Below, one piece after another: positions 6,969-17,904 of a stretch of DNA of 39,512 bases. This stretch comes from Spirochaetota bacterium. GTDB lineage: Bacteria > Spirochaetota > Leptospiria > Turneriellales > Turneriellaceae. The DNA lies in the NCBI GenBank assembly GCA_017302045.1, contig JAFLED010000006.1:1-39512 (forward strand), read 5' to 3'. Made by a program: the position numbers and the translations under genes. Under the pieces are notes generated by a model that ran no database searches, was not told the DNA's origin, and saw only the letters and a program-made list of their open reading frames with translations. The first letter of the stretch is position 1, and each line of letters starts with the position of its first letter.

Positions 6969-7817
6969 ATGGCAAAATTACTCATTCAACCCATTGACTC
7001 CCTCGACGCTCCCGAGCTGCAGTTGTACCGTACTCTACGCCGTATTGAAGAGCACGAGCGCGCCGGTGTGTTTGTCGCAACTAACGTCAAAGTTGTAGAG
7101 CGCCTTTTTGCGAGTCGCATTGAAGTCGCTTCGGCGCTGCTGACACCCGAATGGTATGAAAAATTCGCGGCGTCACTGCGGGCGCGCCCCGAAGCAGAGC
7201 TGCTAGTCTATATCGGCGAAAAGGTACTTCTCGAAACGATCACGGGTTATCACCTGCACCAGGGCGCTCTCGCCGTGGGTCGAATACCCCGGCAGCTGAC
7301 TCTGCCTGAACTGCTGGCAACAGCGCCGCGCCCGCTGCTCTTTGCCGCAGTCGAAGGTATTGCCAGCGCTGAAAACCTGGGCGCGATCGTGCGTGGCTGC
7401 GCGGCATTCGCAGCACATGCGCTCATTGTCGGTGAAACCTGCGTCAGCCCCTTTCAGCGCCGCGCGGTTTCAGGTTCGATGGGCAGTATCTTCGAACAAC
7501 CGGTGCTTATGGCGACAAACCTCGTGGCCACGCTGCAAGAACTGCGCGCGCATGGTGTGCGTTGCCTCGCCGCCGACCCGGCCGCCGATGCGACGAAATT
7601 ATTTGACGCCGATTTGCGCGGCGACACCTGTCTGGTTTTTGGGGCAGAAGGTCCGGGCCTCAGCGAAGCGGCGCTAAAAGCCTGTGACGAGGTGGTCGAG
7701 ATTCCGATGCCGAGCCACATGAACTCACTCAATGTGGCAGCGGCAACGGCCGTCTTTCTTTATGAAGCGACGCGGCAGCGCGGTTACGGCAGTTCTGAAA
7801 AAGTCATGCGCGGCTAA
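6969..7817 (+). CDS. TrmH/SpoU-family RNA 2'-O-methyltransferase
   Basis: 282 residues from ATG 6969 (MAKLLIQPIDSL), chosen because GGGTG precedes it and the product then has the family's usual length; the frame remains open 141 bp upstream. Residues about 20-100 are the substrate-binding domain that precedes the SPOUT fold. The three SPOUT motifs are visible: SAENLGAIVRGCAAF (N-x-G-x-x-x-R), LVFGAEGPGLSE, and MPSHMNSLNVAAATAVFLYE, the last forming the knotted SAM site. Enzymes of this family methylate ribose 2'-OH groups in rRNA or tRNA. The exact target cannot be assigned from sequence. The gene is convergent with the aldolase gene, with hairpins in between. Confidence 0.85.
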   Translation: MAKLLIQPIDSLDAPELQLYRTLRRIEEHERAGVFVATNVKVVERLFASRIEVASALLTPEWYEKFAASLRARPEAELLVYIGEKVLLETITGYHLHQGALAVGRIPRQLTLPELLATAPRPLLFAAVEGIASAENLGAIVRGCAAFAAHALIVGETCVSPFQRRAVSGSMGSIFEQPVLMATNLVATLQELRAHGVRCLAADPAADATKLFDADLRGDTCLVFGAEGPGLSEAALKACDEVVEIPMPSHMNSLNVAAATAVFLYEATRQRGYGSSEKVMRG

Positions 7818-13879: not shown

Positions 13880-14593
13880 TCAGCCCGGTTGAGTAATGCT
13901 GGCGCGCAATGCGGCAAATGCGGCGAGGTATTCGGTCTTGTCGAACTCGAATGGCCCTACCTGGGGAAAGTCGATCTCCTTTGCCACATCTTCCCTGATG
14001 TCGGCCTCGCGATCGATGGTATATGTCCCTTTTTTATACGCATGGATGAATTCGTAATCGTTCTCGTATTCTGCAGTGGCCCATTGCCCGAGCATACCAT
14101 AGTTCTTGCCTTCGGCTAACCACAGCTCGAATAACCGTTGATCGAGAACCGATTTATCTTCGTTGAAGTAGGCGGCGGGTTTCTCACGGCCATTGTCGAA
14201 ATGCCGCCAAATAACCGTACCCGGTGTTTCAAGAATTTGCATCGTTACGCTGCCGCAGTAGAGATCGCCGCATTCCGGGCAGCCATAGATATGCACGCGC
14301 CGGTTTTCGAGGAAAGTCGGAATCTCGAGCGTCAATACAAGGGGTAATCGGCCGGCATGTTTGAACTGGTTGAAACAGTCTTTCAGGTGGAAAGTTGTCG
14401 TGAAACTCTCGGGCTTCAGCATACCCGTCAGATCGTTTTGATCAACGGAACACAAATCGGCGAGCGACTGCCCGTTGACGATAAAATCGATATACTCGAC
14501 ACCGATTCTGTGGCCATCCATCGCCATGTTCTTGCGCGCGCCTTCAGGCTGTACTTCGAGGCGATGGCGCCATTGAAACGACAGTTTATCCAT
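13880..14593 (-). CDS. Hypothetical protein with Cys motif, last gene of the ECF41 operon
   Basis: 237 residues from ATG 14593, preceded by AGAGG; the frame opens 18 bp earlier. The central stretch IYGCPECGDLYCGSVTMQI gives Cys105, Cys108 and Cys113, a small metal- or redox-type cluster I recall only from uncharacterised proteins. The rest mixes charged and aromatic segments (HFDNGREKPAAYFNEDK) with no signal peptide. Its start overlaps the stop of the ECF41 sigma gene by 8 bp, so the two are translationally coupled. I do not recognise an enzyme. Position suggests it is part of the sigma-controlled response, possibly redox-related. Confidence 0.75.
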   Translation of the reverse strand: MDKLSFQWRHRLEVQPEGARKNMAMDGHRIGVEYIDFIVNGQSLADLCSVDQNDLTGMLKPESFTTTFHLKDCFNQFKHAGRLPLVLTLEIPTFLENRRVHIYGCPECGDLYCGSVTMQILETPGTVIWRHFDNGREKPAAYFNEDKSVLDQRLFELWLAEGKNYGMLGQWATAEYENDYEFIHAYKKGTYTIDREADIREDVAKEIDFPQVGPFEFDKTEYLAAFAALRASITQPG

Positions 14594-15572
14594 AGCTGCG
14601 CCTCTGCACAAAAAACTTCTTCTTCATGAGCAACCAGCTCAGGCGCAGCCGCTGCGATGCAGAGAGTATTTTTTGTACCGGCACCAGAGCACCGCGCCGC
14701 AGTAAATCCCCCCGGTTTGCCCATGCCTTTAGTTTGTCGGGATTCAGCACCGTGAGTAGTTTTTCAATCGTGCCGCCGCGCGCGTCGAAGTATTGTACAA
14801 ACGCCGGGGTCTCGCGGTTGTAACCGACGAGCACAAGCGTACCCCCCGAATACGCGGCGTAATAATGTGTCGCGCGCACCTTGTTGCGTACTGCGAACAG
14901 AAACTTCGCGGTTTGCCGCGCCGTGCGAATCGGTATTTTCGACGCCGGCACTTTGCCACCCGCATCGGATATGTACAAGATGTCTTCTTTTAAAAGGCGC
15001 AGCAGATCTTTGCGGTCGGGACTATTGCACGCGCTGAGAAACGCGGCGAGCAGCGCGCGCTCTCTTTCGGGCGGCAGGGGGCGACGGTTAGAATCTGCAC
15101 GCAGGCTCTTCTTCGCGCGGTGAAAAATCTGCCGGCAATAATCGCCGCTCTTTTGAGTGACACGCGCTATCTCGGTGTAATCGTAGTCGAAAACCTCGCG
15201 CAAGAGAAACACCGCGCGCTCGACGGGCGACAGTTTCTGCAGCACGGTGAGAAATGCGAGCGACACAGTTTCCCTTTCTTCAAGGCGTTCGTGCGCCAGA
15301 TAAAGATCGGGTACGGGTTCGGGCAGCCACGGGCCGATGTAGGTCTCGCGCTTTTTACGCGAACTTCTTAAGAGATCGATACAGAGGCGGGTGACAATCG
15401 TGGTTAAGAGCGCCGCCGCAGATTGAATTTTCTCTGCGGGCACGCGCGCAAATTTAACATAGGCGTCTTGCAGAATATCTTCGCTGTCTGACCAGCTGCC
15501 CGTCATGCGGTAAGCGAGAGAAAAGAGCCGGGGTCGCGCCTCTTCGTATGCGTTCAGGTGCTTCGTATGCAT
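14586..15572 (-). CDS. ECF41-family RNA polymerase sigma factor with fused regulatory domain
   Basis: 328 residues, about 140 longer than a minimal ECF sigma. Sigma2 is at about residues 10-75 (YRMTGSWSDSEDILQDAYVKF) and sigma4 at about 105-160 (LSPVERAVFLLREVFDYDYTEIA). The linker carries GPWLPEPV (WLPEP at 82-86). The C-terminal SnoaL-like domain carries SDAGGK (202-207, a variant of the DGGG motif) and NPDKL (277-281). WLPEP and NPDKL are the signatures of ECF41, whose C-terminal domain replaces an anti-sigma factor. It starts directly after the lipoprotein stop and overlaps the next gene, inside a four-gene operon. The promoter at 17290-17316 fits its own consensus, so autoregulation is likely. 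Confidence 0.93.
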   Translation of the reverse strand: MHTKHLNAYEEARPRLFSLAYRMTGSWSDSEDILQDAYVKFARVPAEKIQSAAALLTTIVTRLCIDLLRSSRKKRETYIGPWLPEPVPDLYLAHERLEERETVSLAFLTVLQKLSPVERAVFLLREVFDYDYTEIARVTQKSGDYCRQIFHRAKKSLRADSNRRPLPPERERALLAAFLSACNSPDRKDLLRLLKEDILYISDAGGKVPASKIPIRTARQTAKFLFAVRNKVRATHYYAAYSGGTLVLVGYNRETPAFVQYFDARGGTIEKLLTVLNPDKLKAWANRGDLLRRGALVPVQKILSASQRLRLSWLLMKKKFFVQRRSYG

Positions 15573-16130
15573 CTATGTCGGGGCGAGAGCCGCGGTGAGC
15601 GCTGCGCTCAGGTCGGCCGAAAGGGTTTTTACGCCTTTCAATACCCACGCGCCGCCATTTTGCCAGTGAACCGTAAATTTTTCGGTGTGTGTATTGCCGG
15701 CTTCAGAAACTTCGATATCTAACACCACTTCGGTGCCGCCTTCGACCAGGGCGAACGACGAAAACATTCTCACAACAGGGCCGAGTTCGCGCACCGTGAT
15801 ATGCAGGTATTTTTGATTGCCCGCGGCAGCCGGTGCCAGACGTAAATACTCTGCAATACTGCCCGCGTCGGTGCGTTCCAGCTGCGCCGTGCTGAAGCAT
15901 TTACTCCCGCGAAAAAAATCTTCGAAACCCTGTTTTGCCGCGGCCTCGCGGTTTGCGGGCTCTTTCTGGTCTGGCCGCCAGTGCGGCTTCCACAGCACCA
16001 GCGCGCGCATTTGCTCACCCGCTGTTGCACAAATTTTCTCAGCGGGCCCCTGTGGGCTATAATGTACCTGCGTGGATGAACAAGCCCCGGCAGCAAAGCC
16101 GAGGCAGGTAATCAAATACAATGTTCTCAT
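15573..16130 (-). CDS. Lipoprotein in the ECF41 operon
   Basis: 185 residues from ATG 16130 (MRTLYLITCLGFAAGACSST); the frame is open upstream into the oxidoreductase gene but this start creates a proper lipoprotein signal. The lipobox is A-A-G-A-C with Cys17, the relaxed type used by spirochaetes. The mature part ends in strands KYLHITVRELGPVVRMF, EVVLDIEVSEAG and VHWQNGGAWVLKGVKTL, like a small ligand-binding or envelope-stress lipoprotein. I know no named family. It lies 2 bp after the oxidoreductase stop and abuts the sigma gene, so it may sense or buffer envelope conditions for the regulon (inference). Confidence 0.75.
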   Translation of the reverse strand: MRTLYLITCLGFAAGACSSTQVHYSPQGPAEKICATAGEQMRALVLWKPHWRPDQKEPANREAAAKQGFEDFFRGSKCFSTAQLERTDAGSIAEYLRLAPAAAGNQKYLHITVRELGPVVRMFSSFALVEGGTEVVLDIEVSEAGNTHTEKFTVHWQNGGAWVLKGVKTLSADLSAALTAALAPT

Positions 16131-16132
16131 GG

Positions 16133-17281
16133 TTAAGCGGCGCGTGAGGCCACCTGACCGCCGCGCCTGGTGAGCCGCGTCTTGAGCCATGTATAAATTG
16201 GCCAGCCGGTTTTACGCTCCCACGCGGGCGCTGCGGTTGTCATCTTGCAGATCAGTTCTTTGATAATCGCGGCGACACGCCCGGTGAGAATTTTCTCCCG
16301 CGGGGCGCCGCTGTATTTGTCGACGAACTGTACCAGACCGCGCTTGCGGCCGAGACTCACGCAGCGGCCCGGAAAACCAAACCGAAATGCCTCAGGCTCT
16401 TTTCCGCGCAACAAGGCGGCAATCGCGTCGCCGCTGTGCGTGCCCATCGGCATCGCCGTCTGACAACCGGCAAAATCGATCGCTTCGCTACCAAAGCCGT
16501 ATGCTGCTGCATCGCCGCAGGCAAAGATATCTGCAAACCCGCGCACGCGCAGCGCCTCGTCGACCAGCACGCGGTTCTTCGCGTCTACCGGCAGACCTGA
16601 CCGGCGCGCCAGATCGGGAAAATAAAACCCCGTGCAATCGATGCGGATATCCTGCGTTTCGGGTGCCTCGTCTGCGACGAAGTGAATATTCATAGCGGCG
16701 AAAGTTGCGGCGAAATAGCGCCGTGCCTTCTCTGAAAAGCCATGGCCCAGGGTATGCCGGTCATAGACGGTGATCTTTCTTTCAGGCCATGCTTCGCGCA
16801 GCTCGGTCGCCAGCTCGATGCCGGTGAGACCTGCACCCACGATGGTTAATCCGCGCCGGGGTTCTTGCCGCAGCGCATCTTTGAGTTGCGCGGCCGCGTC
16901 GGCTGTATTCACGCGAAAGGCGTTCATCGTGCGGGCAGCCGTTGCTCCGCTGCCGGGCGCGTAGACGAGTATGTCGTAAGCAAAGGGGAATATCCCCGTT
17001 GCGGTTTTGACGAGCACCTGTTTCATTGCGGTGTCGATATTTTCAGCGCGGCCTTGCACAAAGGCGATACCGTTGCCCAGTACCTGCCGCAGGTCGAGGC
17101 GTTTCAGCGTTGCCCCCGCCGCTTTCTGGTGGTTACGTATACGTTCGACAAATTCGCCGCGCTCGTTGACGACTGTAATGTGCACGGCCTTGTCGCGTAC
17201 CCGCAGCCGCAGCGCCGCGTTGACGCCGGCGTAACCGCCCCCTAAAATAAGTACTTTTTTGCTGTCGTGTTCTTGTTTCAT
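16133..17281 (-). CDS. FAD-dependent NAD(P)H oxidoreductase (NDH-2-like), first gene of the ECF41 operon
   Basis: 382 residues from ATG 17281; a GTG two codons upstream is also possible. It is a two-Rossmann flavoprotein of pyridine nucleotide-disulfide reductase type: VLILGGGYAGVNAALRLR binds FAD at the N-terminus, GLTIVGAGLTGIELATEL binds NAD(P)H at about residues 143-160, and GFADIFACGDAAAYGFG holds the FAD-contacting Asp. No CxxxxC redox pair is seen, which fits NDH-2-like rather than thioredoxin reductase enzymes. ECF41 genes are known to sit next to oxidoreductases of this sort, which are their main targets. A near-exact ECF41 promoter precedes the gene, with the start only about 8 bp past the -10 element. 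Confidence 0.87.
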   Translation of the reverse strand: MKQEHDSKKVLILGGGYAGVNAALRLRVRDKAVHITVVNERGEFVERIRNHQKAAGATLKRLDLRQVLGNGIAFVQGRAENIDTAMKQVLVKTATGIFPFAYDILVYAPGSGATAARTMNAFRVNTADAAAQLKDALRQEPRRGLTIVGAGLTGIELATELREAWPERKITVYDRHTLGHGFSEKARRYFAATFAAMNIHFVADEAPETQDIRIDCTGFYFPDLARRSGLPVDAKNRVLVDEALRVRGFADIFACGDAAAYGFGSEAIDFAGCQTAMPMGTHSGDAIAALLRGKEPEAFRFGFPGRCVSLGRKRGLVQFVDKYSGAPREKILTGRVAAIIKELICKMTTAAPAWERKTGWPIYTWLKTRLTRRGGQVASRAA

Positions 17282-17289
17282 ACCCACGT

Positions 17290-17316
17290 GACGGGGGTAG
17301 GTTACAGCCTGTGACA
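17290..17316 (-). promoter_or_regulatory. ECF41-type promoter (TGTCACA-N16-CGTC)
   Basis: On the minus strand TGTCACA (17316-17310) is followed by exactly 16 bases and then CGTC (17293-17290). The ECF41 consensus, from published work on the family as I recall it, is TGTCACA then about 16 bp then CGTC. The oxidoreductase ATG is at 17281, so transcription would begin at or within a few bases of the start codon, giving a leaderless or very short-leader mRNA. I found no second site of this quality elsewhere in the window. Confidence 0.82.
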
Positions 17317-17322
17317 GTTTCG

Positions 17323-17826
17323 CTAAATTTTTGTGCGCACCCAGATACCGAAGCGGCTGGCATAACCGACCATCGTATGCGCAACGCTGCCGTCGCCATT
17401 CAGAATATAAATAGTGGGATATTTATCGATACTAAACCGGCGCGCGAGATTGGGCGCGCCCGCGAGTATCGGCACATCTAACCGGTTCTGGAACGCCGCG
17501 AGCTCGCCGGGCTTTTCATAGTCGAGACCGACGGCCACCGCCTGCACCTTCTCGCTGCCCGCGAATAGATTCAGCGCATCGATCGAGGCTTTACAGACCG
17601 TGCACCAGGGCGCAAAAAAATAAAGCACCGTCTTTTTACCTCCGGCGGTATTAAGCGTAACGGGTTTACCGTCGAGCGTGGTCAATGCCAGCGACGGTAT
17701 TTTTTCGCCGCCGTGTTTCGGCGCCTGAAACCAGTTCACCATCGCAGCAAATATAAAGAAAGCAATGAGATAGATGCCCCAGCGCCCTGCCTTTGTGAAA
17801 ATTGCGCGTGCCGCCGGTAATTGCAT
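17323..17826 (-). CDS. TlpA/thioredoxin-like membrane-anchored redox protein
   Basis: 167 residues. An N-terminal membrane anchor (about 15-32, GIYLIAFFIFAAMVNWF) is followed by a thioredoxin-fold domain of the TlpA/ResA type. It shows PSLALTTLDGKPVTLN, the redox site FFAPWCTVCKAS (C-x-x-C) and the cis-Pro region DKYPTIYILNGDG. It should face the periplasm and reduce or oxidise disulfides, for example in cytochrome maturation. It is encoded just upstream of the ECF41 operon on the same strand and ends 7 bp before the -35 element, so it is a separate transcription unit or reads through into it. Confidence 0.82.
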   Translation of the reverse strand: MQLPAARAIFTKAGRWGIYLIAFFIFAAMVNWFQAPKHGGEKIPSLALTTLDGKPVTLNTAGGKKTVLYFFAPWCTVCKASIDALNLFAGSEKVQAVAVGLDYEKPGELAAFQNRLDVPILAGAPNLARRFSIDKYPTIYILNGDGSVAHTMVGYASRFGIWVRTKI

Positions 17827-17904
17827 GCCCCCAATATACTACAGAGATCGGTTCTGTCGCCCGAAAAAACCGACCCATTTTCGCGCAGCCGGCGTCTAAG
17901 GTCT

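What the first reader, a model, noticed from the sequence alone, without database searches (positions are those of the whole stretch)
17290..17316. Consensus ECF41 promoter upstream of the operon that encodes its own sigma factor, with a near-leaderless start
Minus strand 17316-17290 reads TGTCACA, exactly 16 bases, then CGTC. This is the ECF41 consensus as I recall it from published work. It precedes the FAD oxidoreductase gene, and the ECF41 gene is the third gene of the same operon. The start codon is only about 8 bp after the -10 element, so transcription would start at or next to the ATG. Autoregulation by a sigma factor that carries its own regulatory domain, from a leaderless promoter, would be a compact switch in a spirochaete.
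Basis: partly seen in the sequence, partly recalled or inferred. Interest (0 to 1): 0.75.

Follow-up and report, generated by a model that had tools for sequence, protein, structure and literature searches.

The report
Leaderless ECF41 promoter, conserved in leptospires
A bacterial stress-type sigma factor (ECF41) appears to switch on its own operon from a promoter placed so that the messenger RNA should begin exactly at the first gene's start codon, and this exact spacing is kept in related spirochaetes even when the first gene is a different one.

Summary
Minus strand 17316-17290 reads TGTCACA-N16-CGTC, the published ECF41 consensus, in the 41-nt gap before a four-gene operon (FAD oxidoreductase, lipoprotein-like gene, ECF41 sigma factor, unknown). 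In Sinorhizobium meliloti the mapped ECF41 start site is the 9th base after CGTC; here the 9th base is the A of ATG 17281, so the mRNA is predicted to start at the AUG. No Shine-Dalgarno sequence and no later start codon before the FAD motif is available. The spacing is conserved: four of four same-genus ECF41 operons and four operons of another family in the class have ATG exactly 8 nt after CGTC, although the first gene is an FAD oxidoreductase, a cytochrome-b-like protein or a carboxymuconolactone decarboxylase. Across the class, offset 8 occurs 10 times against about 0.45 expected. Elsewhere ECF41 promoters mostly have Shine-Dalgarno leaders, but Xanthomonadaceae put ATG 8-9 nt after CGTC before the sigma gene itself. 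A tree gives at least three changes between the two arrangements. Autoregulated ECF41 operons and leaderless mRNAs are each known; I found no report joining them. New variant of a known kind. No transcript data exist; 5'-end mapping would settle it.

The parts
17310..17316 (-). -35 element TGTCACA
   Evidence: Exact match to the ECF41 consensus (consensus); exact in all same-genus ECF41 operons
17294..17309 (-). 16-nt spacer
   Evidence: Published spacer is 16 +/- 1; 16 in all eight leaderless class loci
17290..17293 (-). -10 element CGTC
17281..17281 (-). Predicted transcription start (+1), the A of the ATG
   Evidence: 9th base after CGTC, the distance mapped for the S. meliloti ECF41 promoter; inference, not measured here
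17328..17332 (-). A5 tract upstream of the -35, possible UP-like element
   Evidence: A5+/T5+ tracts at -14 to -24 from the -35 in 11 of 15 class sites against 9% of random stretches
16133..17281 (-). First gene: FAD/NAD(P)-dependent oxidoreductase (382 aa), the COE gene, predicted to be read without leader
   Evidence: Pfam Pyr_redox_2; NDH-2/FSP1-like in PDB; no later start before GGGYAG
15573..16130 (-). Second gene: putative lipoprotein (MRTLYLITCLGFAAGACSS...), no family match
   Evidence: scanned as 15573-16142
14586..15572 (-). Third gene: ECF41 sigma factor with fused C-terminal domain (328 aa)
13880..14593 (-). Fourth gene, overlaps the ECF41 stop; no family match
17323..17826 (-). 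Upstream neighbour: TlpA/ResA-like redoxin; its stop lies 6 nt before the -35. Its homologue lies downstream of ECF41 in L026 and L027

Best explanation
This is the ECF41-dependent promoter of a COE-type operon that includes the ECF41 gene. RNA polymerase carrying the ECF41 sigma factor recognises TGTCACA-N16-CGTC and starts transcription at the 9th base after CGTC, the A of the FAD oxidoreductase's AUG. The mRNA is then leaderless and is read by the 5'-terminal-AUG route without Shine-Dalgarno pairing. The third gene of that mRNA makes more ECF41, giving positive feedback that the sigma factor's fused C-terminal domain restrains. The -10-to-AUG distance is under selection independently of which gene is first. 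Shown by sequence: motif, exact spacing, absence of SD, conservation. Inferred: sigma binding, +1 position, leaderless translation, feedback.
For: Exact consensus in a 41-nt gap. Canonical ECF41 in the same operon. Motif, N16 and ATG at offset 8 in all four same-genus ECF41 operons, with FAD first in two and a cytochrome-b-like gene first in two, and in four operons of another family with CMD first (one of these, L031, has TGTCACG). Class census: offset 8 seen 10 times, 9 of them before real ORFs, against 0.45 expected from the reversed control (Poisson P about 6e-11). The excess is absent in 345 genomes of the phylum outside the class. S. meliloti ECF41 start site is 9 nt after CGTC. Xanthomonadaceae: all 14 ECF41 genes recovered start 8 or 9 nt after CGTC although offsets 4-14 were allowed. 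Leaderless mRNAs are common in the class: 430-450 L. interrogans genes have a start site within 10 nt of the start codon.
Against: No transcript, protein or binding data for this organism. The published start-site distance comes from alphaproteobacteria and may differ by a base. ECF41 promoters studied elsewhere have 22/23-nt leaders with an RBS, and class and phylum relatives L028, L029, L030 and L039 have leaders too. In the four CMD operons a second in-frame ATG at offset 32 cannot be fully excluded as the start.
Confidence: 0.85

Rival explanations
1. An ECF41 promoter, but with a short leader: transcription starts a few bases before ATG (for example 17284-17282) and translation uses no true leaderless mechanism.
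For: Start sites can scatter by a few bases. In Xanthomonadaceae the commonest offset is 9, which implies a 1-nt leader with the same +1.
Against: Offset is exactly 8 in 8 of 8 class operons, and the mapped ECF41 +1 is the 9th base. No SD could fit in 1-5 nt.
Confidence: 0.1
2. The motif is a chance or dead match; the operon is read through from a sigma-70-type promoter upstream of the redoxin gene (GCGACA-N16-TATATT, 17860-17833).
For: A sigma-70-like site precedes the redoxin gene, and the gap to the FAD gene is only 41 nt, without a terminator-like site.
Against: Motif and spacing are conserved in same-genus operons where no redoxin gene was found upstream. Read-through mRNA would have no SD before the FAD gene.
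Confidence: 0.04
3. ECF41 promoter with a misplaced start codon: the true start is elsewhere and the mRNA has an ordinary leader.
For: A second in-frame ATG exists in the CMD operons of L031, L037, L038 and L040.
Against: In the window and L025 there is no other start codon between the ATG and the GGGYAG dinucleotide-binding motif. The upstream in-frame GTG would not be transcribed.
Confidence: 0.03

Closest known systems
ECF41 autoregulated COE operons of B. licheniformis (ydfG), R. sphaeroides (RSP_0606) and S. meliloti (SMb20029-rpoE9)
   Same: Same -35/-10, N16 spacer, first gene of COE type, sigma gene in or next to the same operon, no anti-sigma gene nearby
   Different: In the first two the start site is followed by 22/23 nt with a ribosome-binding site (PMC3426412); here +1 is predicted to fall on the AUG
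Leaderless mRNAs of Leptospira interrogans
   Same: Same class of spirochaetes; start site at or within 10 nt of the start codon in 430-450 genes (PMC5243855)
   Different: There no promoter motif other than sigma-54 was found; here a defined alternative sigma factor is tied to the leaderless start
Xanthomonadaceae ECF41 genes (this work, e.g. L094, L096, L171)
   Same: TGTCACG-N16-CGTC with ATG 8-9 nt downstream
   Different: The first gene is the sigma factor itself; the -35 ends in G; separate place in the tree

Membership tests
ECF41 sigma factor | Sigma region 2 and region 4 without region 3 | tested here: met
   Pfam Sigma70_r2 and Sigma70_r4_2
ECF41 sigma factor | Fused SnoaL-like C-terminal domain, with conserved motifs GPWLPEP in the linker and DGGGK and NPDKL in the C-terminal part (motif names from my own knowledge) | tested here: met
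   GPWLPEP and NPDKL present; DGGGK is DAGGK here; SigJ/SigX4 models match full length, just below curated cut-offs: 269.6 against 271 and 292 against 323; SigJ 5xe7 aligned over residues 5-281
ECF41 sigma factor | COE gene (carboxymuconolactone decarboxylase, oxidoreductase or epimerase) next to it and no anti-sigma gene | tested here: met
   FAD oxidoreductase heads the operon; no anti-sigma match among the neighbours
ECF41-dependent promoter | TGTCACA, 16 +/- 1 nt, CGTC before the COE or sigma gene | tested here: met
   consensus from PMC3426412
ECF41-dependent promoter | Activated by the cognate ECF41 | not testable with these tools
   Needs reporter or in vitro transcription
Leaderless mRNA | +1 coincides with the A of the start AUG | tested here: inconclusive
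   Predicted from the S. meliloti distance and conserved spacing; no 5'-end data
Leaderless mRNA | No Shine-Dalgarno sequence, AUG start codon | tested here: met
   CCCCCGTCACGTGGGT precedes ATG; ATG in 8 of 8 class operons

The most novel reading that the evidence does not exclude
ECF41 promoters form a recurrent leaderless class, gained at least three times, in which selection fixes the AUG on +1. The whole ECF41 regulon would then be translated by the SD-independent route and could stay on, or turn on, when canonical initiation is impaired. Under that reading the sigma factor couples its regulon to the state of the ribosomes.
Probability: 0.25. Interest if true: 0.75.

Novelty: new variant of a known kind. 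Interest (0 to 1): 0.5.

Why it matters
It predicts, to the base, an alternative-sigma leaderless promoter in a clade where promoter motifs other than sigma-54 could not be recognised. It links a defined sigma factor to leaderless translation in a class known for many leaderless mRNAs. The same arrangement in Xanthomonadaceae and near relatives with leaders gives natural paired comparisons for asking why genes lose or gain leaders. The conserved second target in related genomes suggests that ECF41 can control more than its own operon.

Tried and rejected
Genome-wide motif counting as proof of a regulon: rejected, since 7 matches against 4 in the control is near chance; one target is predicted in this genome. 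Offset-8 match in G031 contig 60: rejected, its ORF has 22 codons. Offset 8 elsewhere in the phylum: no excess. Leaderless arrangement as one ancestral ECF41 clade: disfavoured, with three changes needed and the single clade rejected at p-AU 0.023, though the leaderless set was named after seeing a first tree and parts of the backbone are weak. In one search rows were labelled leaderless or leader; a few leader labels rest on the most plausible start only. The GTG-started offsets 8-9 in Actinopolymorpha and Mycobacterium, and the ATG offset 8 in Solirubrobacter, were left out of the count as single cases.

Full report
What is there. On the minus strand 17316-17290 reads TGTCACA GGCTGTAACCTACCCC CGTC. 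The upstream redoxin gene ends 6 nt before the -35 and the ATG of the next gene (17281) follows the -10 after 8 nt, so the whole promoter fits a 41-nt gap, with an A5 tract just inside the upstream gene. The operon runs FAD oxidoreductase (17281-16133), a lipoprotein-like gene (16130-15573), ECF41 (15572-14586) and an unknown gene overlapping the ECF41 end (14593-13880).

Chance. Shuffles give 0.05 matches per window. Across the genome 7 matches against 4 for the reversed pattern show that the motif by itself is not informative genome-wide; its placement in this gap is (about 2e-5). Only this copy has an ATG-started ORF close behind.

Identity of the sigma factor. The 328-aa protein matches SigX4/SigJ models over its whole length, slightly under their curated cut-offs, carries GPWLPEP, D(A)GGK and NPDKL, and its best solved relative is M. 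tuberculosis SigJ, 5xe7. The published ECF41 consensus is TGTCACA-n16(+/-1)-CGTC, found upstream of COE genes that often head an operon with the sigma gene (PMC3426412). The first gene here is an oxidoreductase, related by sequence to NDH-2 and FSP1 enzymes. The genome holds one ECF41 gene at E <= 1e-20.

Where transcription should start. The S. meliloti start-site map places the same motif 9 nt upstream of the +1 of the ECF41 operon (PMC3616915), and the later table prints CGTC ATGGTGTC G for that promoter, nine bases after CGTC (PMC6180224; the bold type marking +1 is lost in the text copy). Table 5 of PMC3426412 gives 31/32 nt where the mapped leader is 22/23 nt, also a difference of 9. The 9th base after CGTC in the window is the A of ATG 17281. 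An uncertainty of one base remains.

Conservation. Same-genus loci L025, L026 and L027 all have the exact motif, N16 and ATG after 8 nt. L025 starts with the FAD gene, while L026 and L027 start with a cytochrome-b-like gene that is second in L025. In another family of the class, L037, L038 and L040 (exact) and L031 (TGTCACG) have the same spacing before a carboxymuconolactone-decarboxylase-like gene. Over 48 genomes of the class, TGTCACA-N16-CGTC followed by ATG at 2-30 nt gives 17 places, 10 of them at offset 8, against 13 control matches spread over 29 offsets. Nine of the ten precede genuine ORFs. Outside the class, in 345 genomes of the phylum, offsets 5-11 are flat.

Start codon. In the window and L025 nothing but this ATG can start the protein before the GGGYAG motif; the GTG at 17287 lies upstream of the predicted +1. 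There is no Shine-Dalgarno sequence. In the four CMD operons a second ATG 24 nt later is possible but also lacks one.

Other lineages. In 80 ECF41 loci from other phyla most motifs are followed by 20-60 nt leaders, many with SD-like sequences. Relatives L028, L029, L030 (same class) and L039 (same phylum) also have leaders. In Xanthomonadaceae, however, all 14 ECF41 genes recovered with TGTCACG-N16-CGTC start 8 (4) or 9 (10) nt after CGTC, though 4-14 were allowed. In a tree the three leaderless groups are separate, two of them grouped with relatives that have leaders (99/98 for the CMD operons with L029; 84/86 for the window's genus with L028 and L030); at least three changes are needed and one clade is rejected at p-AU 0.023, with the caveat that the group was named after a first look.

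How it probably works. ECF41-holoenzyme starts the operon at the AUG; the leaderless mRNA is translated from its 5' AUG; the third gene feeds back on the promoter; the fused C-terminal domain sets activity in place of an anti-sigma factor. The first step follows from the motif and published work, the leaderless start from spacing and conservation; feedback and translation mode are inferred.

What is known and what is new. ECF41 autoregulated operons are established (PMC3426412). Leaderless mRNAs are common in L. interrogans (PMC5243855). The paper library has one paper holding both 'ECF41' and 'leaderless', and the passages seen do not join them. The new part is a fixed, recurrent leaderless form of the ECF41 promoter.

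Limits. Draft genome (84% complete), no transcript data, organisms of whole-genome hits unnamed; G004's chromosome length (4,384,015) fits my memory of Turneriella parva but was not verified.

Noticed in passing
L138 around 6781 (-), L139 around 7136-7579 (+), L140 7224-7643 (+): Exact ECF41 motifs precede homologous DUF4345-like membrane protein genes in three class genomes with no ECF41 gene within several kb: offset 8 in two, an SD-containing leader in the third. A likely second ECF41 target acting in trans, contrary to the published view of one target operon per ECF41.
   Followed up: partly
window 17328-17332 and 10 of 14 other motif sites of relatives: A5-8 or T5-8 tracts start 14-24 nt upstream of the -35 in 11 of 15 sites against 9% at random and 9 of 37 in other phyla; possible UP element.
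   Followed up: partly
window 17323-17860: The redoxin gene has a sigma-70-like -10 (TATATT) ending 6 nt before its ATG, so it too may be leaderless. Its homologue lies downstream of ECF41 in L026 and L027.
   Followed up: partly
window 14586-15572, residues around 203-207 of the protein: The otherwise conserved DGGGK of the ECF41 regulatory domain is DAGGK in this copy.
   Followed up: no
window 13880-14593 and 15573-16130: Two operon genes without any Pfam or NCBIfam match and without homologues in the related ECF41 loci examined.
   Followed up: no
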